The notes beneath the pieces are model-generated. The model made no database searches and was not told the DNA's origin. It worked only from the letters and a program-made list of their open reading frames with translations. A program made the translations under genes and the position numbers. 64,000 bases of DNA from Fibrobacter sp. UWB5 (GTDB lineage: Bacteria > Fibrobacterota > Fibrobacteria > Fibrobacterales > Fibrobacteraceae), in assembly GCF_002210295.1 (NCBI RefSeq), contig NZ_MWQH01000001.1:434001-498000 (forward strand). The letters are read 5' to 3'. This document shows, piece after piece, positions 5,920 to 17,577 of this stretch; position 1 is the stretch's first letter; every line of letters begins with the position of its first letter.

Positions 5920-5930
5920 GTATCTGCATA

Positions 5931-5962
5931 CGACGCTAATTGTCGCATGCTCAATCTATATT
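5931..5962 (+). promoter_or_regulatory. Site A: WYL-island dyad plus TATATT, Fic promoter
   Basis: The 15-bp core CGACGCTAATTGTCG (5931-5945) is followed after exactly 11 bp by TATATT (5957-5962). The symmetry extends outward (GCATACGAC / GTCGCATGC). It is one of four such arrangements in the island; the others are at 7486, 13482 and 17486 (minus). The dyad overlaps where a -35 element would lie, which fits a repressor or class II activator site. The Fic gene starts 28 bp after TATATT. Confidence 0.75.
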
Positions 5963-5990
5963 CGTGATGTTCCCCTAAAAGGAGTGCGTC

Positions 5991-6524
5991 GTGAACAGAT
6001 TGGAAAAACTTGAAATATCGAATGTCATCGGTGATTTTCGTGCGGCCCTTGAAACTTTGGACCGCTACGACCATCAGCAACTGGAATTCCCGAAGACCGG
6101 CGTAGACTACAGCGAAACGAACGGCCCCATCACCTATGAGTTGGCGATGGAAGCGATTTCTGTGCTCAAGGAAAAATTCCGCGACAGCGGAATCTTCGGT
6201 GTCGAAAAAGATGCTTCTTTCAAGAGTTCACTCGGACAAATTTACCAGACCTTCGACGGCAAGGAACTTTATCCGACCGTGCAGATGAAGGCGGCAACAC
6301 TCCTGTATCTGCTTGTCAAGAACCATTCCTTTGTCGATGGCAATAAACGTATTGCTGCATTCATTTTCTTGTGGTACATGTCGCGCAACGATATCCTTTA
6401 TCGAGTGGACGGCTCCAAAATCGTAAGCGATGGTGCCCTGGTCGCACTCACGCTGCTCATTGCCGAAAGCAAACCCGAAGAACGTGAAACCATGACCAAA
6501 CTCGTGGTGAATTTGATTTTGTAG
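5991..6524 (+). CDS. Fic/Doc-family protein
   Basis: A 177-residue protein with the active-site loop HSFVDGNKR near residue 115. This is the Doc-like version (HxFx[D/N]GNKR), which in phage P1 Doc transfers phosphate to EF-Tu; classical AMPylating Fic proteins have HPFxxGNGR. It could modify a host protein post-translationally and act as a toxin. No Phd-like antitoxin gene is visible upstream. It resembles the C-terminal half of RhuM-type virulence proteins, so it may be a stand-alone version or a shortened one. GTG start with GGAG six bases upstream. It is followed after 9 bp by a FISUMP gene and preceded by site A of the proposed WYL regulon. The target and the antitoxin are unknown. Confidence 0.85.
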   Translation: MNRLEKLEISNVIGDFRAALETLDRYDHQQLEFPKTGVDYSETNGPITYELAMEAISVLKEKFRDSGIFGVEKDASFKSSLGQIYQTFDGKELYPTVQMKAATLLYLLVKNHSFVDGNKRIAAFIFLWYMSRNDILYRVDGSKIVSDGALVALTLLIAESKPEERETMTKLVVNLIL

Positions 6525-6533
6525 GAGGCTTTT

Positions 6534-7163
6534 ATGAAAGACTCATACTTTACAGACCCGCGAGACGGTGAAACCTACCGCACCGTGAAAATCGGAAATC
6601 GGATTTGGTTCGCCGAAAACTTGCGGCATAAATGCGAAGGTGCGCAGGCGTATGCTGGCGGCATGGGGTATCTGTGCTTGAATGGCGAAACGCCGCCTTA
6701 CGATTGGAACTGCGACCCGGATGTGAAGAAATATGGCTTGTGCTACTACTGGAAATTTGCAGAAGCCGCAGTCCCCAAAGGTTGGCGCTTGCCGAACAAT
6801 GACGATTGGCGAGACTTGTTTAATGCAGTTGGCGCAAAATGTGAAATGGGCGAGCATGGTGCCGAAACTTACCTTGGGGCGGCTCTTGCGTTAAAGTCCA
6901 AAGACGATTGGGAAGAAGACGAACTGTTCCCTGTCGGTAAAAGTACCGATGCTTTCGGTTTTACGGCGTATCCGGCAGGCTGCATGGAGGAATTCGGCTT
7001 TTGCGGAGCACGTGGCAGACACACGCGTTTCTGGAGTTCCGTCGGGCAAAACAAGTGGGCATACCGCGTTCGCCTAGACAATTGTTACGACGACGCCGTT
7101 CTCGACCGTTTTTGGAACGATTTTTCCTGCGCGAATTCAATCCGCTGCGTGAAGGACTGCTGA
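6534..7163 (+). CDS. FISUMP (Fib_succ_major) domain protein without signal peptide
   Basis: A 209-residue protein that is essentially one FISUMP domain: DPRDGETYRTVKIGNRIWFAEN at the start, then Y.WxFAExxxPKGWRLPNxxDWRDL, GFTAYPAGC, RFWSS and a final SIRCVKD. FISUMP domains are typically on exported Fibrobacter lipoproteins. This one starts directly at the domain with no signal peptide or lipobox, so it is probably cytoplasmic. It is cysteine-rich (about ten Cys). ATG follows TAGGAGG and lies 9 bp after the Fic stop, so the two are co-transcribed. A partner, substrate or antitoxin role for the Fic protein is possible but is inference. Confidence 0.85.
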   Translation: MKDSYFTDPRDGETYRTVKIGNRIWFAENLRHKCEGAQAYAGGMGYLCLNGETPPYDWNCDPDVKKYGLCYYWKFAEAAVPKGWRLPNNDDWRDLFNAVGAKCEMGEHGAETYLGAALALKSKDDWEEDELFPVGKSTDAFGFTAYPAGCMEEFGFCGARGRHTRFWSSVGQNKWAYRVRLDNCYDDAVLDRFWNDFSCANSIRCVKDC

Positions 7164-7212
7164 AAACATAAAATTGCACTTTTTAGGTAAAATTAGGCAA
7201 TAAATTATGTTT

Positions 7213-7294
7213 TAGTCCATTATGACGAACTATTTTCTGTATTTTAGTCCATTACAGTGGACTATTTACTGTATTTTTGTCCATTAGAAAGTGA
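7213..7294. repeat. Three tandem 32-bp repeats containing a TAGTCCA...TGGACTA dyad
   Basis: Units start at 7213, 7245 and 7277 with a strict 32-bp period. Each contains TAGTCCATTA (TTGTCCATTA in the third). The middle unit holds the perfect dyad TAGTCCATTACAGTGGACTA (7245-7264), and the first has a two-mismatch version. They lie between the FISUMP stop and a terminator at 7376, so they are probably in the 3' UTR of the Fic operon or are an operator cluster. There are no unique spacers, so this is not a CRISPR array. Apart from these repeats and the terminator, 7164-7485 shows no gene. Confidence 0.6.
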
Positions 7295-7375
7295 CTTGTG
7301 GATTAAAAAAGAGACTGTAGGTCTTTGAAGAGCACATAAAGAATGCATTGGAATGGAGCCTTGGTTCTGAAAAGT

Positions 7376-7408
7376 GAAAAAAGTGGTCATCGGGCCATTT
7401 TTTCTTTT
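7376..7408 (+). terminator. Terminator after the Fic-FISUMP operon
   Basis: An 11-bp stem GAAAAAAGTGG / CCATTTTTTC (one G:T wobble) with an 8-base loop is followed by TTTT. It separates the Fic transcript from site B. Confidence 0.6.
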
Positions 7409-7485
7409 GTTGGTTTCGTTGTGTAAAAAAAAGGCTTTTATAAGGTAATCGTTTTTTTTGTAGAGTCCCAACTACCAGAAGTGAA

Positions 7486-7517
7486 CGACATCTATTGTCG
7501 CCTAGTGGGTATATATT
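7486..7517 (+). promoter_or_regulatory. Site B: WYL-island dyad plus TATATT
   Basis: The core CGACATCTATTGTCG (7486-7500) is followed after 11 bp by TATATT (7512-7517), the same geometry as sites A, C and D. A transcript starting about 7 bp later would first read the small ORF at 7555 and then the DUF1232 cluster. Confidence 0.7.
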
Positions 7518-7554
7518 CATCCTTACGGCAAAACTTACGAAAATGCGAGGACCT

Positions 7555-7719
7555 ATGAAAACAAATGCAGCATGCAAAATACTAAAAGCGGATTTTGAAT
7601 CTGGAGCGAAGATTGGAGGGGCGAACTTTATAAGACGCTACTGGGCCAAAGTCAAAGACTGGGGTGCTGTGCGTTGGCTGGCGAGGCTAGGAGGGCGCCC
7701 GTTACGACATCAAAAATGA
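7555..7719 (+). CDS. Possible 54-residue small protein
   Basis: The ATG at 7555 follows GCGAGG and opens a frame of 54 codons for a basic peptide with many Lys, Arg and Trp (WAKVKDWGAVRWLARLGGR). It would be the first gene of the transcript from site B. No family is recognised. It has neither a convincing hydrophobic segment nor a known motif, and it may be a leader ORF or chance. The downstream DUF1232 gene has its own TATATT at 7781-7786. Confidence 0.3.
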   Translation: MKTNAACKILKADFESGAKIGGANFIRRYWAKVKDWGAVRWLARLGGRPLRHQK

Positions 7720-7753
7720 ATATGCGTATGGTAAAGACGTATTTTTCTTCAAA

Positions 7754-7786
7754 AAAAGTGCACTTTTGAAAAAAACAGGATATATT
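7754..7786 (+). promoter_or_regulatory. Promoter-like region of the DUF1232 gene
   Basis: The 14-bp palindrome AAAAGTGCACTTTT (7754-7767) is followed by TATATT (7781-7786), 21 bp before the DUF1232 start codon. GAGAAGG is the likely ribosome binding site. The palindrome is A/T-dominated and may be fortuitous. Confidence 0.4.
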
Positions 7787-7807
7787 TCTTTTTGAGAAGG
7801 AAAAAAT

Positions 7808-8146
7808 ATGGATAAAGAACCAGAAGTTTTAGATGTGGAGAATTTGAACGGTGCCTCGCCACTGCAAAAGGGGCTCGCCGTTTTTTTGATAATCATGTCG
7901 CTTCTGTACACCGCGTCGCCCATTGACTTGGCTCCCGATGCAATTCCCGTAGTGGGCTGGCTCGATGATGTTGGCTTCCTTGTGACTGCAACCATGAATG
8001 CGGTTCAGCAGTTCGCAAAGGATCAAAATAGCGCGTTGGTGAAAATTCTAAAATACGCCAAATGGTTTATGGTCATCGCCGTTGTAATCGCCGCGCTGCT
8101 ACTCGGCGGTTTGATTGCTGCGATTGTGGCGCTGGTGGTGAAGTAG
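7808..8146 (+). CDS. DUF1232 (YkvA-like) membrane protein
   Basis: A 112-residue protein. The core LYTASPIDLAPDAIPVVGWL followed by DD is the DUF1232/YkvA signature (xLSPIDLIPDFIPVLGxLDD). One hydrophobic segment runs just before and into this motif (about 22-50), and a second, very hydrophobic one ends the protein (about 85-111), so it is probably an inner-membrane hairpin. The molecular function of the family is not established. ATG follows GAGAAGG. It lies 14 bp before the zinc-motif miniprotein gene, with which it is probably co-transcribed. Confidence 0.85.
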   Translation: MDKEPEVLDVENLNGASPLQKGLAVFLIIMSLLYTASPIDLAPDAIPVVGWLDDVGFLVTATMNAVQQFAKDQNSALVKILKYAKWFMVIAVVIAALLLGGLIAAIVALVVK

Positions 8147-8160
8147 TCTGGAGGCTATGT

Positions 8161-8367
8161 ATGAATTTTTATTGCAAAAAATGCGGACAGTCCTACGATG
8201 CTTGGACTATTGCGAATGGTGGCTGCAGCAAAGGCGGCAAGCATGACCCTTATCGCGGTATGCAACAGGGGCCTAAATACGTGTGCGCCAAGTGTGGCTT
8301 TTCATATGATTTTTGGACAATCGCCAACTGCGGATGTAGCCGTGGCGGGAAGCATGAAGTGTTGTAG
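8161..8367 (+). CDS. Tandem CCCH zinc-motif miniprotein
   Basis: A 68-residue protein made almost only of two copies of one motif: CxxCGxSYDxWTIANxxC followed by S(K/R)GGKH. Each copy has the spacing C-x2-C-x13-C-x5-H, which suggests that each binds one zinc ion. The second copy carries an extra Cys. The spacer between the copies is about 14 residues. I do not recognise a named family, and the small size suggests a protein- or nucleic-acid-binding adaptor. The start at 8161 is supported by TGGAGG and by the motif beginning at residue 5. It lies 14 bp downstream of the DUF1232 gene. Confidence 0.75.
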   Translation: MNFYCKKCGQSYDAWTIANGGCSKGGKHDPYRGMQQGPKYVCAKCGFSYDFWTIANCGCSRGGKHEVL

Positions 8368-8384
8368 TTAAGGAAAAAAATATT

Positions 8385-8831
8385 ATGTCAAAATATTGGG
8401 AAAAAATTGAGCCGTCGAATTTGGCTAAATATGTGGATAAATTTGGCAATATGAAAATGTTTCTCCATTTTATGGAAACCGATTTGGCAAAATATAAGTC
8501 CATTCAGTCATTAGGGTTTCAACCTGGTGAGGATGTCCTTTATCTTGTTACTGATTTGAGTTGTTGGTGTAATGAACCAAATACATTCAAATTAGATTTC
8601 TATTTGTTCGAAGGCGAGTATCATCTTTGCCTAAAAAGAAATAAAGATAAAGAATTTAAAGATGAAGATGTTCCAGAAAAAATTTTTGAAATCATTAATA
8701 AAATGTTTCGTATCTATAGAAATGATTCCCTTTGCATAACATTAATGGACAATTGTGATGGAAAATTAATAGCCTCGAGATTAAAAATCTTTCTAGATGA
8801 TTTATCTGTTGCTTTGAAAAAAAGCAAATGA
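8385..8831 (+). CDS. Hypothetical protein, AT-rich, island gene
   Basis: A 148-residue soluble-looking protein rich in Lys, Asp and Phe, with no signal peptide or membrane segment. No family is recognised. It has a predicted alpha/beta pattern: an N-terminal helical stretch (EPSNLAKYVDKF), a middle beta region (VLYLVTDLSCW ... FKLDFYLFEGEYHLCLKR) and a C-terminal helix. The ATG follows AAGGAAAAAAA. It is much more AT-rich than glnN or alaS, as is the next gene, which suggests recent acquisition. It lies 17 bp after the zinc-motif gene and 24 bp before the next ORF, so it belongs to the same transcription unit. Confidence 0.7.
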   Translation: MSKYWEKIEPSNLAKYVDKFGNMKMFLHFMETDLAKYKSIQSLGFQPGEDVLYLVTDLSCWCNEPNTFKLDFYLFEGEYHLCLKRNKDKEFKDEDVPEKIFEIINKMFRIYRNDSLCITLMDNCDGKLIASRLKIFLDDLSVALKKSK

Positions 8832-8855
8832 ATTATAATTGTGGAGAATTTAACT

Positions 8856-10325
8856 ATGTCGTCATCAAAGAAATCAAGTAAACAATCTGCTTCGAAAAAA
8901 GACGCCAAACCGGTAGCAAATGAAACTACCGATAAAAAAGTTCCTTTTTGGAAAAAAGTTAATGATGGTATGGATGGAGCAAAAAAGGCTATTGATTCTG
9001 GAAAAGCTATAAACGAAAATTTGGGAAATCCTTTAAAAATTTTAAAAGACAGCTTTTTTAGTGTGTTTAGAAAATCCAAAGAAGAAGAAATAAAAAAGGA
9101 TAATCAGGAAAATGTTAGTGCAACATTAGATCAAAAGATTGTGAAATCTAGTGATGCTGAAAAACCTATTGAAGATTTTGATAAAAATGAAGTAGAAAGC
9201 GTTGATGAAAATTCTTTGAATGATGCACCTGACGAAAAAAATAGTAAAAAATCGGCATTTGAATTATTTGAAAAACAGTTGCAGGTTTGTTCGGAAAACC
9301 CGTTGTATAGTGATTCTGTAAAAAATTTGGTTGTTGCAGAATTGGGTATGTTTAAAATACTGAAATCGCCAAATTGTTTGTTGCTTCAGAATTTTAGCGA
9401 TTTAGTTATGGAACATTTATTACTCTCTTTTGAAAATATAGAAGATGAAAATGATAAAAAGAATTTCCAAAAAAATGCAGGATTGTTAATTCGTTCAATA
9501 GTAAATTATTTACAAGCGCGAATAGCTTATCTTGAAGATGATAGTGTTGGAGCTCAGGATCTTGTAGACAGTGCTTGTAGTGATATTACATCTATATCAA
9601 AGTTTATATTAGGTATTTTGACATCGAATAAAACAAAAATAGATATAGAAGGTCTTGCATTTACACCGGTTGCAGGAAAAGTTAGCAAAATCTCTATTGA
9701 GCCAGAGTTTGATTATGAATCAATAAAAAATGCTTGTGATGAACTGAAAAAAATAAAAAGCTTTGGATTCTTTGCACGACTCTTTCTTGCAAGAAAAAAA
9801 ATACAACAAGAAAAAGAAATTTTTTATTCCTTTTTAGCAGGATTGTTTGAAAATTTAAGAAAATACAGATATGTTTTTGGATGTGAAAATAGAATTTTGT
9901 CGCAACTTGTTGAACGATATGGATCGATTATTGCAGAAGAAGGTGTGTTTTCAGAAGATGATGTAATGGATGGATTTTGGAAAATAGTAGAAATAGACCC
10001 TTTGTTGATGAATGAATATCCTAAATATCCTCGACGAAAACCATTTTATATCCCTTTGATTGTAGTATTGTTTTTGACAATCATATTGGATTCGGGAATT
10101 ATATATGCAATAAGGGATACAAGCTTTTTTGTTCTATTAACAATTTTAACCATAATTATTTCAGTAATCATTGCATATTTTGTTTTGCAATTCATTGATG
10201 AAGTATATTATGGTGAAATGGCGAATAATGAATGGCGAGAAAAAGTTAATAATTTTTATAAAGAAGTTGCTTGTGTTTATTACAAAGGGTTAGCTAAGAT
10301 ATTTTATGATTTTGATAAATCCTAA
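8856..10325 (+). CDS. Large hypothetical protein with C-terminal membrane hairpin, AT-rich
   Basis: A protein of 489 residues. A Lys/Ser/Asp-rich, probably disordered N-terminus (about 1-140) precedes an all-helical middle part (about 140-390). Two adjacent transmembrane segments at about residues 392-440 (FYIPLIVVLFLTIILDSGII and a second after a short RDTS turn) are followed by a 50-residue tail. It is probably an inner-membrane protein with a large cytoplasmic part. No known domain is recognised. A GTG at 8841 would add 5 residues, but the ATG at 8856 is preferred because TGGAG lies suitably upstream. Base composition is very AT-rich compared with core genes. Soluble helical region plus terminal TM hairpin is a layout found in several defence effectors, but no effector motif is seen. 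Confidence 0.7.
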   Translation: MSSSKKSSKQSASKKDAKPVANETTDKKVPFWKKVNDGMDGAKKAIDSGKAINENLGNPLKILKDSFFSVFRKSKEEEIKKDNQENVSATLDQKIVKSSDAEKPIEDFDKNEVESVDENSLNDAPDEKNSKKSAFELFEKQLQVCSENPLYSDSVKNLVVAELGMFKILKSPNCLLLQNFSDLVMEHLLLSFENIEDENDKKNFQKNAGLLIRSIVNYLQARIAYLEDDSVGAQDLVDSACSDITSISKFILGILTSNKTKIDIEGLAFTPVAGKVSKISIEPEFDYESIKNACDELKKIKSFGFFARLFLARKKIQQEKEIFYSFLAGLFENLRKYRYVFGCENRILSQLVERYGSIIAEEGVFSEDDVMDGFWKIVEIDPLLMNEYPKYPRRKPFYIPLIVVLFLTIILDSGIIYAIRDTSFFVLLTILTIIISVIIAYFVLQFIDEVYYGEMANNEWREKVNNFYKEVACVYYKGLAKIFYDFDKS

Positions 10326-10346
10326 TTAGTTTGAAGGAACTTTTCT

Positions 10347-11027
10347 ATGACCCCGCAAGTTCAACAGCTTTACAAAGTTCTTTACGACAAGGCGAAATCT
10401 CTGCCCAATAGCGATGCTTTGGGTATTATGCCGACGCATTTTGTTGGTCCGAAAAGCCGTTTTAAGAAAGGTTTGCCGATGTTCATCGGTCGGGATACTT
10501 ATGGCCTTGGGCAGGACAAGGTTCCGTTGGTAACCGATTACGAATACGATGGACTGAATTGGCTCAAATCTAGGGATGGCTATTACTTTGATGATTCCTC
10601 GTTTTGGAGGGTGGTCGGTCATGTCCTTGAACGGGTTCGTGGTGAGTCGTATGGTTCGAATGTCTTCCATGATTTCTATTGGAGCGACTTGTATAAAATT
10701 AATTTCCGCGCGAAACAGGGAACCACACAGGGCTTAAGAAGTAATCAGATTAATGAATGCGCCCAGTTGTTGCTTGCTGAAATGGATGACCTGGATCCCT
10801 GCGTTTCTGTTTTCTTGACCGGCGTTTACGAGGGTGAGAAAAAGGGTGTCGGTCGATTCTTTGAACGCTGGGAACCTCGCGGACAACTTAAATCAAAAAA
10901 TGATTCTACAGGCGAATTTACCCTAGTTGACGGATCTGGAACAATGCATCGATGCATTGTTGTGCCGCACCCGCAAGGAAAAGTACAGGAAGAAATTATT
11001 CAGAAGATTTGCTCCCTGTGGAAATAA
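10347..11027 (+). CDS. Uracil-DNA-glycosylase-superfamily-like protein
   Basis: A 226-residue protein. Two segments recall the uracil-DNA glycosylase fold: MFIGRDTYG near residue 45 resembles the water-activating motif (GQDPYHG), and CIVVPHPQGK near 202 resembles the HPSPLS loop that contacts the DNA minor groove. The central part has DFYWSDLYKINFR, where such folds often have a N(L/M)xK-like strand. It lies 89 bp upstream of a DUF262-HNH nuclease gene, so a nucleic-acid or modified-base sensing role is plausible. The similarity is by eye only; a nucleotide- or phage-related hydrolase of other descent is possible. The ATG follows GAAGGAAC. Composition is closer to core genes than that of its AT-rich neighbours. 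Confidence 0.55.
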   Translation: MTPQVQQLYKVLYDKAKSLPNSDALGIMPTHFVGPKSRFKKGLPMFIGRDTYGLGQDKVPLVTDYEYDGLNWLKSRDGYYFDDSSFWRVVGHVLERVRGESYGSNVFHDFYWSDLYKINFRAKQGTTQGLRSNQINECAQLLLAEMDDLDPCVSVFLTGVYEGEKKGVGRFFERWEPRGQLKSKNDSTGEFTLVDGSGTMHRCIVVPHPQGKVQEEIIQKICSLWK

Positions 11028-11115
11028 ATGTTAAGAAGGTAGTCTTTCGACAATCCTATTTGAATGATTTCTGGGTGGTCTGTCGGTTATTGAATAAAAA
11101 GATGAAAAGGTGGAT

Positions 11116-13434
11116 ATGGGAAATACAAACGAATGGACTCTTCAAGAAATTGCCAATTGGTCCGATGTCAAAATAAAAATTCCTGCTATACAACGGGGAC
11201 TTGTATGGAAACCATGGCAAATTGAATTATTGTGGGATTCTATTTTAAGAGGTTTCCCCATAGGATGCTTTTTGCTTTCTGAAAATTGTGATGGCACATA
11301 TGATTTGATGGATGGACAGCAACGATTCAATGCAATAACATGTGCTTTTTCACCATTAAAGGACGATTCCCAATCAGAATTATGGATTGATATAGATCCG
11401 GAAGTGTCAGAAACAACAAGACTTTTTTGGATTAAAGTGACGACCATTGCCCATCCGTGGGGTTTTGAAAACAATGATGAATGCAAGGTGCTGCCTGCAT
11501 CAAAGAGACGGAATGCATTAGAGAAATTTGGAAAAACGCCTCACTTCAATATTTATCACGACAACGAAAGGGACAATCTCACTCTTTCAGAGTCGTTTCC
11601 TTATATGGCGAAAGCCCCGGTTCCGCTACACTATATGCTGGATGCGTGTAAAGACTCTGCGAATGAGGATGACTTTGCTGAATCCATTATCATCAAGATT
11701 AAAGAATCAAATCGTAATTTTGCAAAGAACAAACTTGTTTACGACAAGGAGAAAATCAAGATTTTTTACCCTATATTTAAAAGAATAAAACAATATAGAG
11801 TCTACTCAAATGTCATAAACGTTCTAGATAAAACGGATGGTAGGCAAGAAGACGCCTCGGGCCTAGAAATTCTTTTCAATAGACTGAACAGAAATGGAAC
11901 TCAAATTACCGCTGATGAACTCAAATATTCTGCAATAAAGGCATATTGGCCGGAAATCAGAGACATCAACAATGATTTGGCTCAAGGAATTATGCCTCCG
12001 GAAAGACTTGTTTTGATAATATTTAAATTAGTTTTAACAGAAAATAGTAGGTCTCTAAAAAATGAACCAACTATTAAGCAAATTAGAGAACTTGCAGGAG
12101 TTGATTCTATAAAAAATCTTGTTAATTGCAAATACAAACACTTCAAAAGCTACTTTGAAAAAATTAATGATTGGTTGGGGGTTGACAAAACTATTGATTC
12201 AACACCAATAATTCTTCGTTCTAGGATTATTAACAATTCTCCAGACCTGTTCTTTTTATTAGTCTTCATGGCTAGCAATTCTGTAAATACTCTCCCAAAA
12301 GAGACTGTGCGTGCATTTGTCTTTTTTATTCATTTTTTTGTAAGCAATAAATTGCATAAACAAATAATTGAAGGCTATGTACAAAACAGTTATTCTTCTA
12401 ATCCAGAGACCTTTGAAAGAATTTTTTATACGCAGATTGGTAATCTTGTGAATAAAAATTTTTTTATTCCTTCGTATAAAAGTGGTTTGCGTCTAGATGA
12501 GAATAGTATACAATCTAGCGAAAAATGGTTTGAAAATACCTTTTCTTCACACTCCGCACAGCAGATATTCAGCCTCATCAAGAACAATCGTGAAATACTC
12601 TTATTTGCCCAAAGGCGGTTTTTAAATAAGAATTTTGATATGTTTCTTTCAACGAGTGGAAAGGCATGGGAAGATCACAATGTCCCATGGGATTACGATC
12701 ACATTGTTCCCCAGGAATGGATAGCTAGTCAAAGAGGTGGAGCTATCCCGTTTTGCAAACAATGGCTTAATACCATAGGAAATCTTGCTGCTATTCCATT
12801 TGAAGTAAATCGCTCGAAGAGCAATAATGGCTGTTGGGATTTTTATGAAAACAATGCTGATGAACTTTTCTTTGATAAAGGTTTTGCTGAACAACAAATT
12901 AGAAAAAATAATCTAAAACAAGAATCGTGTGCCGTTAAATTTGCGAACTTCAGTTTGCAACGAATGCAAAAAATATACGAGCAGCTGGACAATGTCCTCA
13001 ATCCAATAGATTTCAATAAAGTGCTTTGGGACGATAATTATATTGTTAATCGGAAAAAATTTTTTGATGAAATTGAAAAATGCTCAAAGGAGCCTGCATC
13101 AAAATCTTTTTTCAATGGAGAAAGCGATGTCCAAATCTTGCATCCATTAGATTGGTGTAGACACTGGATTTCTATCGGATACAAAATCAATAATAAATAT
13201 TTTATCGCAATGACATCTCAAGGTGAAGCGTTAGATATGGAAATAGGAGTCCGAAAAATAAACAGAGAGGATTCTGAAAAATTGAATGTGACAGGCGCGT
13301 TGAAAGATTATACTGTTTATGATAATAACCCTTATTGGTTTATCTGTAAAAATATTCCGGCAGATACGATTGTTGAAATAATTGTCAAAGAATTAGAGAT
13401 GTTAAGAAAATTTGTATTAGACCATTTGTCATAA
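11116..13434 (+). CDS. DUF262-HNH endonuclease (GmrSD/SspE-like)
   Basis: A 772-residue protein. The N-terminal DUF262 domain (ParB/sulfiredoxin-like) carries LMDGQQRFNAI near residue 65, preceded by IPAIQRGLVWK. The C-terminal DUF1524-type HNH nuclease shows WDYDHIVPQEW near 521 and LNTIGNLAAIP...NRSKSN about 30 residues later. About 170 residues of unassigned sequence follow. This pair of domains defines type IV restriction enzymes such as GmrSD and the SspE effector, which use the DGQQR domain for nucleotide hydrolysis and the HNH to cut modified or phage DNA. AAAGGTGG precedes the ATG at 11116; an in-frame GTG lies 6 bases earlier. It is AT-rich. Neighbours are the UDG-like protein upstream and the WYL-linked AAA+ gene downstream. 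Confidence 0.88.
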   Translation: MGNTNEWTLQEIANWSDVKIKIPAIQRGLVWKPWQIELLWDSILRGFPIGCFLLSENCDGTYDLMDGQQRFNAITCAFSPLKDDSQSELWIDIDPEVSETTRLFWIKVTTIAHPWGFENNDECKVLPASKRRNALEKFGKTPHFNIYHDNERDNLTLSESFPYMAKAPVPLHYMLDACKDSANEDDFAESIIIKIKESNRNFAKNKLVYDKEKIKIFYPIFKRIKQYRVYSNVINVLDKTDGRQEDASGLEILFNRLNRNGTQITADELKYSAIKAYWPEIRDINNDLAQGIMPPERLVLIIFKLVLTENSRSLKNEPTIKQIRELAGVDSIKNLVNCKYKHFKSYFEKINDWLGVDKTIDSTPIILRSRIINNSPDLFFLLVFMASNSVNTLPKETVRAFVFFIHFFVSNKLHKQIIEGYVQNSYSSNPETFERIFYTQIGNLVNKNFFIPSYKSGLRLDENSIQSSEKWFENTFSSHSAQQIFSLIKNNREILLFAQRRFLNKNFDMFLSTSGKAWEDHNVPWDYDHIVPQEWIASQRGGAIPFCKQWLNTIGNLAAIPFEVNRSKSNNGCWDFYENNADELFFDKGFAEQQIRKNNLKQESCAVKFANFSLQRMQKIYEQLDNVLNPIDFNKVLWDDNYIVNRKKFFDEIEKCSKEPASKSFFNGESDVQILHPLDWCRHWISIGYKINNKYFIAMTSQGEALDMEIGVRKINREDSEKLNVTGALKDYTVYDNNPYWFICKNIPADTIVEIIVKELEMLRKFVLDHLS

Positions 13435-13481
13435 AATGTAAAAAAATATTGGTTTGATTTTTTTGTGGAGGGTGCATCGCG

Positions 13482-13513
13482 CGACATTAATTGTCGTGCG
13501 CTTCTTTTATATT
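13482..13513 (+). promoter_or_regulatory. Site C: WYL-island dyad plus TATATT, AAA+ promoter
   Basis: The core CGACATTAATTGTCG (13482-13496) is followed after 11 bp by TATATT (13508-13513), and the AAA+ start codon lies 26 bp later. GCG(C/T)-type flanks extend the dyad. Geometry is identical to sites A, B and D. Confidence 0.75.
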
Positions 13514-13539
13514 GCATAGCAGAAACAAGAGGTTTTGCT

Positions 13540-15840
13540 ATGCAGTTACATTATCAGAATTCGGCAGAGAATTATTTCGGGAATGCGCTGAATCGGTTAG
13601 AAGGGGAGTCGCCTGCGGCGAAGGCGGAGTCGAGGACTTCTTTTATCGACTTGAAGATTATGGAATACTGGGTGCGCTTTATGCGGGCGTATCCGGATGG
13701 TTGCTGTCGCAGTTTTTGTGAGAATTATTTGCCGGTCCGTTATTATGGCGAATTTGCGGACCGTGTTTACGAGATTCGCGACCAGGTTGATTTTTCGAGT
13801 ACTATCAGGGCTTCGATTGATGACAAGCATTATGGGGTACGGGAGCTTTTGGAGGCGTATCACGAAACCAGGAATGTTCGCTTTGCTCAGCAGTTTTTTG
13901 AGATTATGGCTTATTTGGAGCGCGCGAACGATTGCCTGCGACCGATTGTCGTGCAGATGATTGAAAATTGCGTAAAAGAAAAGCTGGCAAAAGGTTGCTC
14001 GTACGATGACGAAGCTTTGCAACGCGCTTTTGAATTAAAGCGTCTTTTCCATTTGTCGGATGAGGCGGTGGAACTGGTGCTTTATTTGTGGCTTCGGAAC
14101 CATCAGCGACTGTATTTGAGGCTAGAAAACATTCGGGTGAAAGAGGGGGAAACTTTTGACCCGAATGAGCGTGGAGCCTTTAGTCGGATAGCCTTGCTGA
14201 CGGGGCTTGATGGCACATCGCTTCAGGAACTTTGTTCCAAGGAGAGTCCGCTTCTTAAGTTTCAGTTGGTTCAAATGGAAGAATCGTTCCGCAATACGGA
14301 TTTGAGAATCAAACGCAAGGAATTGTACCTAGCGGACGACGTGAGCAATTATCTGTATGGTTTCTCAGATATGTCGCAGATTATGGATTTCAGACCGGCT
14401 GCAAAACCGTGTGTTCCCTATGAGCAGATTGTCAAGACGAACCCGCAGGCGTCTTTTGTTTTGCAGATGCTGAAATCGCACCAGAAGGGTTCTCCGCTGA
14501 ACATTCTTTTTTATGGTCGCGAGGGAACGGGCAAGACGGAACTTGCCAAGGCGATTGCGCAAAAGTTGAATGTTACGCTGCTTTCGGTGGGCATCGGTGA
14601 AGAATCGATGAGCGAGGAATCCCTTTTGCAGACGCGCTTGCGCTCGATGCTTTTGGCCGATTGGGAATGTGAGCGGAGTGGCGGCATCATCTTGATGGAT
14701 GAGGCGGACTTGGTCTTGAACAAGGCCGAAAAGGGATTGCTGAATATTATTTTCGAGAGCCTGAAAACGCCTGTCATCTGGATTACGAATAATATCGCGA
14801 TGATTGAAAATAGCACCCGCCGTCGTTTCGATTATTCGTTGGAATTTTTCTCGTTCAGCAAGAGTGAACGCATTGCGATTTGGCAGTCCGTACTGAAAAC
14901 GCAGCAAGCGGAATCGATGATGCGTAGCGAAGATATCGAATGTGTCGCCAAGGAAATTCCGGTGATGGCAGGTAGCGCCACTTTGGCAGTTCGGCTTGCG
15001 CAACGGATGCAGTCTCAGGAGATGTCGCCTTTGAATGTGGTTCGCGAGGTCGCATCTTCGCATGCGAAACTTTTGGGTATATCGACTTTGCCGCAGGAAT
15101 CAAGATCGGAGTATAATTTGGATTGCGTCCGTATTTCGAGTGGAGATATTCGGAATGTAGATTATGTCGTGCCGATGCTCAAGAATTTTGATGCCCGTTG
15201 GAAAGATTCGAAGGTGACGGGGCGCAGGGAAAACTTGAATATATTCCTGTATGGTCCTCCCGGTACCGGAAAATCGGCTTTTGCAAAGCATGTCGCGCAT
15301 GACATTCTAGATCGCGAGATTATCGTGAAACGGGCGAGCGATATTCTGGGGAGCCATGTGGGTGAAAGTGAACATAACGTTAGCGCCATGTTCCGTGAAG
15401 CGGAACGGAGTGATGCGATTCTGTTTATTGACGAGGCGGACAGTTTCTTTGAAAATCGTGGCAACGCGAAAAATCATTGGGAAGTGACGCTTGTGAATGA
15501 GTTCATTTGCCAGATGGATTCGTTCAATGGGATGCTGATTGCTGCGACAAACTACGAGAATGTTCTGGATTGGGCGATTCGCCGGCGCTTTCAGCTGAAA
15601 CTGGCGTTTAACTATATGGATCTGCCGCAAATTTCAAAAACATGGACGGCATTTTTCGGGGGCCATTGCCCCAAGGAAATCCTTCGCTGTGATAATGTGG
15701 CGATTAGCGACTTTCAGAATGTGCGCCGCAAGCTGGAATATGTGCCTGCCGAGTTGCGGACGAAGGAACTTATCTTGCAGAACATGCTCGAAGAACTCGC
15801 CAATAAAGACGACCATCAGGGCCGTAGGCTGGGGTTGTAG
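13540..15840 (+). CDS. Tandem AAA+ ATPase of the WYL island
   Basis: A protein of 766 residues. An N-terminal region of about 300 residues, helical and without a known domain, is followed by two AAA+ modules. Module 1 has Walker A GREGTGKT near 326, Walker B GGIILMDEAD near 381, sensor VIWITNN and a TRRRFD arginine segment. Module 2 has Walker A GPPGTGKS near 570, Walker B AILFIDEAD near 626 and RRRFQLK. Both look catalytically intact and CDC48/FtsH-like, which suggests a remodelling or unfolding motor. The ATG at 13540 follows AAGAGG; longer versions would run into site C. The PLD gene starts 26 bp downstream on the same strand. With the adjacent one-HKD protein and WYL regulator this is a candidate defence or stress module; the substrate is unknown. 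Confidence 0.85.
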   Translation: MQLHYQNSAENYFGNALNRLEGESPAAKAESRTSFIDLKIMEYWVRFMRAYPDGCCRSFCENYLPVRYYGEFADRVYEIRDQVDFSSTIRASIDDKHYGVRELLEAYHETRNVRFAQQFFEIMAYLERANDCLRPIVVQMIENCVKEKLAKGCSYDDEALQRAFELKRLFHLSDEAVELVLYLWLRNHQRLYLRLENIRVKEGETFDPNERGAFSRIALLTGLDGTSLQELCSKESPLLKFQLVQMEESFRNTDLRIKRKELYLADDVSNYLYGFSDMSQIMDFRPAAKPCVPYEQIVKTNPQASFVLQMLKSHQKGSPLNILFYGREGTGKTELAKAIAQKLNVTLLSVGIGEESMSEESLLQTRLRSMLLADWECERSGGIILMDEADLVLNKAEKGLLNIIFESLKTPVIWITNNIAMIENSTRRRFDYSLEFFSFSKSERIAIWQSVLKTQQAESMMRSEDIECVAKEIPVMAGSATLAVRLAQRMQSQEMSPLNVVREVASSHAKLLGISTLPQESRSEYNLDCVRISSGDIRNVDYVVPMLKNFDARWKDSKVTGRRENLNIFLYGPPGTGKSAFAKHVAHDILDREIIVKRASDILGSHVGESEHNVSAMFREAERSDAILFIDEADSFFENRGNAKNHWEVTLVNEFICQMDSFNGMLIAATNYENVLDWAIRRRFQLKLAFNYMDLPQISKTWTAFFGGHCPKEILRCDNVAISDFQNVRRKLEYVPAELRTKELILQNMLEELANKDDHQGRRLGL

Positions 15841-15853
15841 AGTTTAACAAATC

Positions 15854-15859
15854 TATATT
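15854..15859 (+). promoter_or_regulatory. -10 element of a predicted leaderless PLD transcript
   Basis: TATATT lies exactly 7 bp before the ATG of the PLD gene. With a start site about 7 bp after the -10, the mRNA would begin at or next to the start codon, and no Shine-Dalgarno sequence is present. Confidence 0.5.
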
Positions 15860-15866
15860 TTCCACG

Positions 15867-16388
15867 ATGTCCATCTTTACCAAATACATCCAGAACGAAG
15901 AACACTATTCCGAAGTGATTTCACGAATCATGTCGGTTCGCAATAACTTGTGGATTGGTACTGCCGACATTAAGGATGTGTATGTGAAACAGGATGGTGA
16001 GGCGATTCCGTTGCTGGGGCAGTTGGCTGCGCTTTTGAAGCGGGGGGTGGGCGTGCGTTTGATTCATGCGAAGGAGCCTGGCCCGAATTTTCGCGAGGAC
16101 TTTGACCGCTTTCCGATTCTGGTGACGGATTTGGAGCGCGTGATGTGCCCGCGAGTGCATTTCAAGATGATGATTTTTGATCTTGAAACGGCTTACATCG
16201 GGTCCGCGAATTTGACGGGTGCGGGAATCGGCATGAAAAGCTCTCTACGCCGTAACTTCGAGGCGGGAATCCTCACGAATGACCCTGCGCTTGTCGAACC
16301 TGCTATAGAACAGTTCGATACGTTGTGGATGGGCTCGCATTGCAAAAAATGTGGCCGCCAGGAATTCTGCGGTGACAGGATTAAGTAG
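15867..16388 (+). CDS. Single-HKD phospholipase-D-like protein with zinc knuckle
   Basis: A 173-residue protein. One HKD motif, HFKMMIFD near residue 99, is followed by the expected (G)SANLTGAG about 15 residues later, typical of PLD-family nucleases that dimerise to build the active site (Nuc/BfiI type). The last 20 residues carry HCKKCGRQEFC, a possible zinc knuckle for DNA or protein binding. The start is supported by TATATT seven bases upstream, giving a leaderless transcript. It lies 26 bp after the tandem AAA+ gene and ends tail to tail with the WYL gene, their stop codons overlapping by 8 bp. Likely role: nuclease partner of the AAA+ motor (inference). Confidence 0.85.
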   Translation: MSIFTKYIQNEEHYSEVISRIMSVRNNLWIGTADIKDVYVKQDGEAIPLLGQLAALLKRGVGVRLIHAKEPGPNFREDFDRFPILVTDLERVMCPRVHFKMMIFDLETAYIGSANLTGAGIGMKSSLRRNFEAGILTNDPALVEPAIEQFDTLWMGSHCKKCGRQEFCGDRIK

Positions 16389-17406
16389 ACTTTCTTTCGT
16401 ACAGGTTCACCAGTTCCTTCGCGCTGTCGAGTACCATTTGGCGGAGCTTGGCGGGCTTTAGCACCTCAGCGATAGAACCATAGTACATGATCCATTGCTT
16501 GAGCAGACCGTTCACGGCGACTTTCATGGTCACGTGTATGTCGCCGCAGTCCAGTTCCTTGATTTTCATGCTGGGGTGATAGGGGCGTTCCTGCAGAAAG
16601 TTTTTGGCGTAGCCCGGGAAATAGATGACGACTTTTTCTTCTTGTTGGTCTTGGTCGCCGGACAGCAGCGTACCGGTGCGGATTCGTTTACGGAGAATGT
16701 CGACAACTTTCGGATCTTCGACGAATTGTTCGCGCAAAAGTTTTACGGATTGAATACGGCGGAGCTTGAGGGTGTATGTTTGATCGGGGTGGTGCTGCGA
16801 TACGCAACCGATGTAGATTTCGCCCTGGTGGATGGCTACCATCAGCGGAATGCGCGGCTTGTTGGTAGGATTTCCCCAATTGTCGGTGTAGGCGATTTGC
16901 ACCTTCTGTTTTTTACGAATTGCATCAAGAATGACCGGCAGATTTTTGCCGACATTTTCGTCAACGCTCGGTGGCGTACCCATGAATAGGATGCGTCCAT
17001 TCAATTCCTTCGCGTAATATGCTAAAGTCGATTGTTCCTTAGCGGGCAAGTCCTGCGTGATTCTCTTGATCAAGTCTTCGATGAGGTTTGAAGTTGCTGG
17101 ATAAATGTTCGCGATGCGCTGCAGGAACATGAAATGCAGTAGCGTGTCGCCAAATTCCGGGAATATGAGCTTGTTCGCGCGTTCTAGCGCCACTTGGTAA
17201 TAGGTCCTGCCGCTTTCAACAGAGCGCTTGATGTAACCGCCCCCTATATTGGAAAGCGCTTGCATGTCTCGCTGAACGCTCCGTAAGTCCCCTTCACGGA
17301 AGTCTAAGTGCCGCATGATGTCTGTTACACTGTAACGGTTGTTGTAGTGCGCCATCATGTAGACGAATATCTGTATCATTCGTTCGCCGCGAGTTTGACT
17401 GGCCAT
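16381..17406 (-). CDS. WYL-domain transcriptional regulator
   Basis: A protein of 341 residues. An N-terminal winged helix-turn-helix (about 1-75; YSVTDIMRHL...RSVQRDMQAL) is followed by a WYL domain (about 140-230), with the signature region as IPLMVAIHQGEIYIGC, and a WCX-like C-terminal extension. The WYL triad is degenerate (I-Y-I). Such proteins (CapW, BrxR, PafBC, DriD) regulate defence islands or DNA-damage genes in response to ligands such as single-stranded DNA. ATG 17406 has GGAGG upstream; longer versions would run through site D. Site D, its own promoter dyad, recurs in front of three other island promoters, which fits an autoregulated regulon. It converges on the PLD gene with overlapping stops. 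Confidence 0.9.
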   Translation of the reverse strand: MASQTRGERMIQIFVYMMAHYNNRYSVTDIMRHLDFREGDLRSVQRDMQALSNIGGGYIKRSVESGRTYYQVALERANKLIFPEFGDTLLHFMFLQRIANIYPATSNLIEDLIKRITQDLPAKEQSTLAYYAKELNGRILFMGTPPSVDENVGKNLPVILDAIRKKQKVQIAYTDNWGNPTNKPRIPLMVAIHQGEIYIGCVSQHHPDQTYTLKLRRIQSVKLLREQFVEDPKVVDILRKRIRTGTLLSGDQDQQEEKVVIYFPGYAKNFLQERPYHPSMKIKELDCGDIHVTMKVAVNGLLKQWIMYYGSIAEVLKPAKLRQMVLDSAKELVNLYERKST

Positions 17407-17454
17407 AAAGCCTCCTGCAGAAGTGCAATTCTCATAAAGTGAGAAGTATTTCTT

Positions 17455-17486
17455 AATATATAAAATGTAGACGACAATAATTGTCG
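17455..17486 (-). promoter_or_regulatory. Site D: dyad plus TATATT, WYL promoter (autoregulatory site)
   Basis: The core, read on the minus strand, is CGACAATTATTGTCG (17486 down to 17472), a perfect dyad with CGACAA arms around three central bases. It extends by two more paired bases on each side. TATATT (17460-17455) follows after exactly 11 bp, as in sites A-C. Confidence 0.8.
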
Positions 17487-17577
17487 TCTTTTTATGCGAA
17501 AGCAGTTCGTTTGCCGAAGCATGGAGGCTGCTTGGCCCCTGCCAAGGAATCAGAAAAATTCTAAATTTGGCCCTGTC

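What the first reader, a model, noticed from the sequence alone, without database searches (positions are those of the whole stretch)
13482..17486. Tandem AAA+ ATPase, one-HKD PLD protein and convergent WYL regulator as an undescribed module
Seen: an intact double AAA+ protein with an unrecognised 300-residue N-terminus, directly followed by a small HKD protein with a C-terminal zinc knuckle, and a convergent WYL gene whose stop overlaps the PLD stop. Established: HKD nucleases and AAA+ motors occur together in several defence systems, and WYL repressors guard such systems. I do not recognise this exact combination as a named system. It may be an anti-phage or DNA-damage-response module.
Basis: partly seen in the sequence, partly recalled or inferred. 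Interest (0 to 1): 0.72.

Follow-up and report, generated by a model that had tools for sequence, protein, structure and literature searches.

The report
WYL-controlled AAA+ gene in defence hotspot
In a Fibrobacter-like bacterium, a double-motor AAA+ protein and a WYL-family gene switch form the real inherited pair; the switch's predicted DNA-binding site precedes the motor gene, the switch gene and many exchangeable defence genes at this spot, while the small nuclease between them is an older resident gene.

Summary
They are not one conserved module. The single-HKD gene is a resident gene: 37 of 40 good genus genomes carry it, usually without this AAA clade, and genome G015 has it next to glnA with no island. 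The heritable unit is AAA+WYL: 21/21 close AAA copies have the WYL within about 10 kb, distant AAA-WYL pairs are adjacent and co-diverge (r 0.78; deep 0.91), and the pair recurs in other phyla and on plasmids, often beside PD-(D/E)XK nucleases or R-M genes. New: the palindrome CGACAATwATTGTCG, exactly 11 nt upstream of a TAyATT -10, precedes AAA, WYL and many variable cargo cassettes. It occurs four times in this 3.36-Mb genome, all in this island, and in 28/28 genus genomes with a close WYL versus 3/52 others. The geometry TTGTCG-N11-TAnnnT equals the published mycobacterial PafBC (WYL activator, DNA damage) promoter tTGTCRgtg-N8-TAnnnT. Most likely the WYL protein switches a defence island built around a p97-like unfoldase; DNA-damage-type activation is favoured over repression but unproven. 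Regulatory linkage rests on strong sequence evidence; the defence function is inferred. No named system matches.

The parts
13482..13496 (+). Predicted WYL operator of the AAA promoter, CGACATTAATTGTCG
   Evidence: 1 mismatch to CGACAATNATTGTCG; same site upstream of AAA in the close orthologues and in G011
13508..13513 (+). -10 box TATATT of the AAA promoter, exactly 11 nt after the palindrome
   Evidence: sequence; 56 of 59 palindromes in such loci have TA[TC]ATT at exactly 11 nt, random positions 0.9%
13540..15840 (+). Tandem AAA+ ATPase, 766 aa from ATG 13540 (ORF open from GTG 13465); about 300-residue N-terminus with weak winged-helix resemblance before AAA1, then two complete AAA modules, p97/Cdc48/Rix7-like
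15867..16388 (+). Single-HKD PLD-family protein, 173 aa, with conserved C-terminal Cx2Cx5C; resident gene, here 26 bp behind AAA
16381..17406 (-). wHTH-WYL-WCX transcription regulator, 341 aa
   Evidence: Pfam WCX 9.3e-10, WYL 7e-6; PADLOC WYL 5.6e-21; co-inheritance with AAA
17472..17486 (-). Perfect operator palindrome of the WYL gene's own promoter (-10 TATATT at 17455-17460 on the minus strand)
5931..5945 (+). Operator-promoter at the left end of the island, upstream of the Fic-like gene 5991-6524 (TATATT at 11 nt)
   Evidence: 8 bp inside the island's left junction
7486..7500 (+). Operator-promoter of the inner cargo genes (TATATT at 11 nt)
5924..15853 (+). 9.93-kb island absent from G015, where glnA is followed directly by PLD
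   Evidence: G015 bases that align to window 5923 and 15854 are adjacent
16390..17538 (-). Segment holding WYL, absent from G015, where a DUF1232-like gene lies between PLD and AlgX
11110..13434 (+). GmrSD-like DUF262 protein, variable cargo
   Evidence: GmrSD_N 6e-23
10347..11027 (+). Weakly UDG-like protein, variable cargo
   Evidence: UDG E=0.016, below the Pfam cut-off; relative in L062
8841..10325 (+). Unrecognised cargo protein with C-terminal membrane helices
   Evidence: no family match

Best explanation
The functional unit is a WYL-controlled regulon at a chromosomal defence hotspot, with the tandem AAA+ as its constant member. (1) Shown by sequence: the WYL gene is co-inherited with the AAA, and a palindrome CGACAATwATTGTCG, 11 nt upstream of a TAyATT -10, stands before AAA, WYL and exchangeable cargo genes. 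(2) Inferred: the WYL homodimer binds this palindrome and autoregulates. (3) Inferred, moderate: it is an activator of the PafBC type. The site replaces the -35 and does not cover the -10, and TTGTCG-N11-TAnnnT equals the PafBC promoter tTGTCRgtg-N8-TAnnnT, so the signal may be a nucleic-acid product of DNA damage or infection. (4) Inferred: the induced AAA+ forms a p97-like double-ring unfoldase whose N-terminus selects a target, and it acts against invading elements together with whichever cargo nuclease is present. (5) The PLD is an older resident gene drawn into the regulon: behind its own operator in the sister clade, and read through from the AAA promoter here.
For: AAA-WYL: 21/21 close AAA copies have WYL within 10.2 kb, AAA v WYL p=4e-13; WYL within two genes of distant AAA copies, 18/211 v 3/522 genes farther off, p=6e-8, and in other phyla 9/164 v 3/353, p=0.002; mirror-tree r=0.78, deep 0.91, no permutation of 5000 as high; WYL within two genes of AAA in 5 of 7 annotated plasmid hits. 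Operator; 4 sites in the genome, all here, 0 in the reversed control; none at <=2 mismatches in 12 WYL-less Fibrobacter PLD loci; same core upstream of AAA or WYL in distant Fibrobacterota with TA..T at 11 nt as the dominant distance, 39 occurrences against at most 4, and in Marinobacterium, Rheinheimera, Thiodictyon and Diaphorobacter. PafBC consensus: PMC5656591. Defence hotspot: LeoA 8e-167, LeoB 1e-147, BnzB 8e-55, PDC-S26, DUF262 nucleases, PIN; type III R-M beside AAA-WYL in L199. Fold.
Against: No binding, expression or phage data. Counts in relatives are not independent by descent. PADLOC hits around AAA were only modestly more than around AAA-less PLD genes (families in roughly 10 against 5 of 67 proteins, my reading of truncated tables). 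CapW and BrxR, the studied defence WYLs, are repressors (PMC9122588, PMC9122601). PafBC is a heterodimer with a non-palindromic site. Only 5 exact core sites lie in the 859 kb of other-phylum loci against about 1 by chance. AAA subfamilies without WYL exist.
Confidence: 0.62

Rival explanations
1. Repressor version: the WYL protein silences AAA and cargo in uninfected cells and a ligand releases it, as for CapW and BrxR.
For: WYL wHTH-WYL-WCX architecture. Palindrome of about 21 bp with 5-bp spacer resembles BrxR repeats (10-11 bp arms, 5-bp spacer, PMC9122601). Defence WYLs studied so far repress.
Against: CapW sites overlap the -10 (PMC9122588); here the site always ends 11 nt before the -10, at the exact PafBC spacing, with no clear -35 box.
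Confidence: 0.35
2. First reader's module: AAA, PLD and WYL work together as one three-gene defence system, with the HKD protein as nuclease effector.
For: 26-bp AAA-PLD gap; PLD-WYL overlap; PLD adjacent to WYL even without AAA (G086, G111, G146); operator directly upstream of PLD in the sister clade.
Against: PLD occurs without close AAA or WYL in 29 genomes and in distant families of the phylum; AAA+WYL occur without PLD in G084, G154, G011, G094 and everywhere outside the genus; variable genes sit between AAA and PLD.
Confidence: 0.13
3. The palindrome is a cassette-exchange (recombination) site rather than an operator.
For: Homology blocks with other genomes begin at it (window 13477, 5930) and each cassette carries one.
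Against: Fixed 11-nt distance to a -10 in 56/59; present at the WYL gene's own promoter; presence follows the WYL gene, not a recombinase; no integrase seen nearby.
Confidence: 0.07
4. The AAA is a housekeeping unfoldase or assembly factor that merely sits in a variable region.
For: p97/Rix7-like fold; several paralogues per genome, some in stable neighbourhoods without WYL.
Against: Patchy distribution: this clade is in 21 of 80 genus genomes; found on conjugative plasmids beside nucleases.
Confidence: 0.18

Closest known systems
PafBC / RecA-NDp regulon of mycobacteria (WYL activator of the DNA-damage response)
   Same: WYL regulator; TTGTCR placed 11 nt before TAnnnT; genes of nucleic-acid conflict or repair.
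   Different: PafBC is a heterodimer with a non-palindromic site and controls housekeeping DNA repair genome-wide; here one gene, a palindrome, and four sites confined to one island.
BrxR / CapW family of defence-associated WYL regulators
   Same: Domain layout, palindromic site of about 20 bp with 5-bp spacer, location in defence islands.
   Different: Those are repressors of BREX or CBASS, with CapW sites on the -10. No BREX or CBASS component here; operator repeated on several unrelated cassettes; partner is a tandem AAA+.
IetAS (AAA ATPase + S8 protease)
   Same: AAA2 gives the best PADLOC and NCBIfam match, to IetA.
   Different: IetA has one AAA module, ours two; score 134 v cut-off 510; no S8 protease partner.
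DISARM DrmC
   Same: PLD fold, weak similarity (6e-10 to NF038319).
   Different: Single short domain, 39 v 133 bits cut-off; no drmA/drmB nearby.
p97/Cdc48, NVL, Rix7, Drg1 type II AAA+ unfoldases
   Same: Two complete AAA modules, same fold.
   Different: Different N-terminus with winged-helix-like part; bacterial, partnered with WYL.

Membership tests
IetAS | IetA above NCBIfam cut-off (510 bits) | tested here: not met
   134 bits
IetAS | Adjacent S8 protease IetS | tested here: not met
   none in window 8.7-18.5 kb or as a constant neighbour of the AAA in relatives
DISARM | DrmC above cut-off with DrmA/DrmB | tested here: not met
   39 v 133 bits; no DrmA/DrmB among the neighbours scanned
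BrxR/CapW-type defence WYL regulator | WYL+WCX domains | tested here: met
BrxR/CapW-type defence WYL regulator | Palindromic site in its own and its target promoter | tested here: met
   17472 and 13482; binding itself not tested
BrxR/CapW-type defence WYL regulator | Represses a BREX, CBASS or similar system | not testable with these tools
   needs expression assay; no BREX or CBASS gene among the neighbours scanned
PafBC-type WYL activator | tTGTCRgtg-N8-TAnnnT promoter geometry | tested here: met
   TTGTCG-N11-TATATT at the four window sites; the consensus is from PMC5656591. The gtg positions are not matched letter for letter
PafBC-type WYL activator | Two WYL subunits (heterodimer), non-palindromic site | tested here: not met
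   one WYL gene at the locus; palindromic site
PafBC-type WYL activator | Activates upon DNA damage | not testable with these tools
   needs mitomycin C RNA-seq
Type II AAA+ (p97/Cdc48-like) | Two AAA modules with Walker A/B and Arg finger | tested here: met
   VIA Z 18.1-18.4 over 440-456 residues to Cdc48/NVL, rmsd 5.4-5.5
Anti-phage defence system | Protects against phage | not tested
   experiment needed

The most novel reading that the evidence does not exclude
A DNA-damage- or nucleic-acid-activated WYL switch of the PafBC type governs an entire exchangeable defence island: each incoming cassette carries (or acquires) the same operator-promoter and is thereby enrolled into one inducible regulon, with a p97-like AAA+ unfoldase as constant effector. 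The same WYL-operator-AAA circuit is ancient and shared by Fibrobacterota and Proteobacteria.
Probability: 0.3. Interest if true: 0.82.

Novelty: new variant of a known kind. Interest (0 to 1): 0.64.

Why it matters
Defence islands are usually described as heaps of independent systems with at most one regulated operon. Here a single regulator's predicted operator is stamped on unrelated cassettes that differ between strains, which gives a testable route by which new defence genes come under common control. It also gives a marker (operator plus AAA-WYL) to find further unnamed defence genes, and links two WYL worlds, DNA-damage activation (PafBC) and defence control (BrxR/CapW), by promoter geometry. 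Picton et al. (PMC9122601) proposed that genes constantly found beside such WYL regulators may be core genes of undiscovered systems; the tandem AAA+ is such a candidate.

Tried and rejected
AAA+PLD as the conserved pair: rejected. IetAS and DISARM membership: rejected on score and missing partners. AAA in phages: one remote hit only; PLD in annotated phages: none. N-terminal domain alone: Foldseek gave nothing with E below 0.001; VIA-align's best rows are winged-helix proteins at Z 6.5-7.8, below the level that could be trusted; kept as a hint only. PADLOC enrichment of neighbours: weak and only partly readable because the tables were truncated; not used as proof. An exact palindrome elsewhere in the genome (C5:75783) lies inside a coding region without a -10 at 11 nt: taken as chance. 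Literature searches for a named AAA+WYL system found none in the held library. In the operator count the one locus at 49% WYL identity with a site (G156) and the one without (G063) are both left out of the 28/28 figure. The 29-v-51 table (29/29 against 2/51, p=9e-20) kept G156 and dropped G063; adding G063 gives 29/30 against 2/50.

Full report
What is there. The window is part of contig C1 of a 3.36-Mb genome whose close relatives are Fibrobacter (record titles). The described genes exist at the stated place. The AAA protein has two complete AAA modules and matches p97/Cdc48, NVL and Rix7 in sequence and in its predicted fold. Its N-terminus has no Pfam match. Folded alone (pLDDT 87) its second half resembles winged-helix proteins, but only at Z 6.5-7.8, which is within what unrelated models reach.

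The PLD is a different story. A relative of 84-99% identity occurs in 37 of 40 good genus genomes, and relatives of 42-56% occur in other families of the phylum. Only 21 of 80 genus genomes carry the AAA clade. In G015 the bases matching window 5923 and 15854 are adjacent: glnA is followed directly by PLD, and neither the 9.93-kb island nor the WYL is there. Other genomes carry the PLD in other neighbourhoods without AAA or WYL. G094 has AAA and WYL but no PLD in its assembly (89% complete; the AAA-WYL interval itself is contiguous). Variable genes (a PIN-type pair, a gyrase-A-like gene) stand between AAA and PLD in several strains. So AAA-PLD adjacency is local.

AAA and WYL belong together. 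All 21 close AAA copies have the matching WYL within 10.2 kb (p=4e-13). G084, G154 and G011 show the bare divergent pair WYL-AAA with gaps of 56-79 bp. In distant Fibrobacterota copies WYL genes lie within two genes of AAA far more often than farther away (18/211 v 3/522; p=6e-8), and the same holds in other phyla (9/164 v 3/353; p=0.002). Distances in the AAA and WYL trees correlate (r=0.78 for all 37 pairs, 0.91 for the 20 deep ones). Annotated plasmids confirm it independently: a WYL gene lies within two genes of the AAA in Desulfosarcina, Leisingera, Thiodictyon, Novosphingobium and Diaphorobacter, with PD-(D/E)XK, DUF2779 or ADP-ribosylglycohydrolase genes beside several of them. A DUF2779 protein recurs with AAA-WYL in both Fibrobacterota and Diaphorobacter.

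The operator. Across the close-clade loci it stands before AAA, before WYL and before many variable cargo genes. In 56 of 59 cases TAyATT begins exactly 11 nt after it; random positions give 0.9%. With the -10 attached, the element occurs four times in this genome, all in this island (window 5931, 7486, 13482, 17472), in 28 of 28 genus genomes with a WYL of 53% identity or more, in 3 of 52 others, and never in the reversed control. It is absent from the 12 WYL-less Fibrobacter PLD loci (L221-L232). In the sister clade the PLD itself has this promoter (L060, L061, L063, L064, L066). Distant AAA-WYL pairs carry the core CGACA-N5-TGTCG upstream of AAA or WYL, with the -10 again most often at 11 nt (39 occurrences, next most frequent 4). 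Exact cores also precede AAA in Marinobacterium (34 bp) and Rheinheimera (45 bp), WYL in Thiodictyon (15 bp), and the gene before AAA in Diaphorobacter (89 bp).

How it most likely works. The palindrome is the binding site of the WYL homodimer (inferred). Its position, ending 11 nt before the -10 and taking the place of the -35, differs from CapW, whose sites cover the -10 (PMC9122588). It equals the geometry of the PafBC-activated promoter, tTGTCRgtg-N8-TAnnnT (PMC5656591). I therefore favour activation, possibly by a nucleic-acid signal of DNA damage or infection, over repression, at roughly 60:40. The induced product is a double-ring unfoldase; defence is inferred from the company it keeps: LeoA/LeoB, BnzB-like, DUF262 nucleases, PDC-S26 and a PIN toxin-like gene at the same spot, and a type III R-M system with a DrmD-like helicase beside AAA-WYL in Marinobacterium. 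I have no direct evidence for phage protection.

Relation to known systems. No named system fits (literature, limited to the held open-access library). WYL control of defence islands is known (BrxR, CapW); what is new is the tandem AAA+ as constant partner, the repetition of one operator-promoter on exchangeable cassettes, and the PafBC-like geometry. Hence 'new variant of a known kind'.

Limits. Close-relative counts share descent. The WYL profile used for other phyla misses some annotated WYL genes (Novosphingobium L245), so those counts are low. ORFs in fetched loci were called by a simple longest-ORF rule. E-values and model scores are predictions, not measurements.

Noticed in passing
window 15867-16388; L249, L250-L252: The PLD family has a 62-65% identical relative on a Segatella hominis plasmid next to an IetAS-like ATPase + S8 peptidase pair, and on three IMG/VR contigs, one beside a UDG-like gene; an HKD family with invariant Cx2Cx5C tail that seems to move between Bacteroidota and Fibrobacterota.
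   Followed up: partly
G007, G069, G087, G123, G130: Decayed or truncated second copies of the PLD gene; G130 has an intact copy and a broken one on either side of the AAA segment, as if cargo were exchanged by recombination through PLD.
   Followed up: no
L058:8370-9383, L069: A short gyrase/topoisomerase IV subunit A-like protein (337 aa, Pfam 1.5e-52) inserted between AAA and PLD with its own copy of the WYL operator; possibly a decoy or target variant.
   Followed up: no
window 5991-6524: Fic/Doc-like protein (recognised by eye, VDGNKRIA motif) behind an operator-promoter at the island's left junction.
   Followed up: no
L060, L061, L063, L064, L066 between WYL and PLD: A second, everted repeat ATTGTCG-NN-CGACAAT overlaps the divergent WYL/PLD promoters in the sister clade.
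   Followed up: no
G000:C1:126242-128647 (L037): A second tandem AAA (about 41%) in the same genome without WYL, in a neighbourhood conserved among relatives (clusters c10-c13): a probably different subfamily.
   Followed up: no
G000:C1:284240-285247 (L038): A second WYL gene (43%) with its own palindrome-like site upstream but no AAA next to it.
   Followed up: partly
L245 (Novosphingobium humi plasmid): WYL-AAA pair flanked by PD-(D/E)XK and UvrD-helicase genes (AddAB-like), suggesting a nuclease-helicase partner.
   Followed up: no
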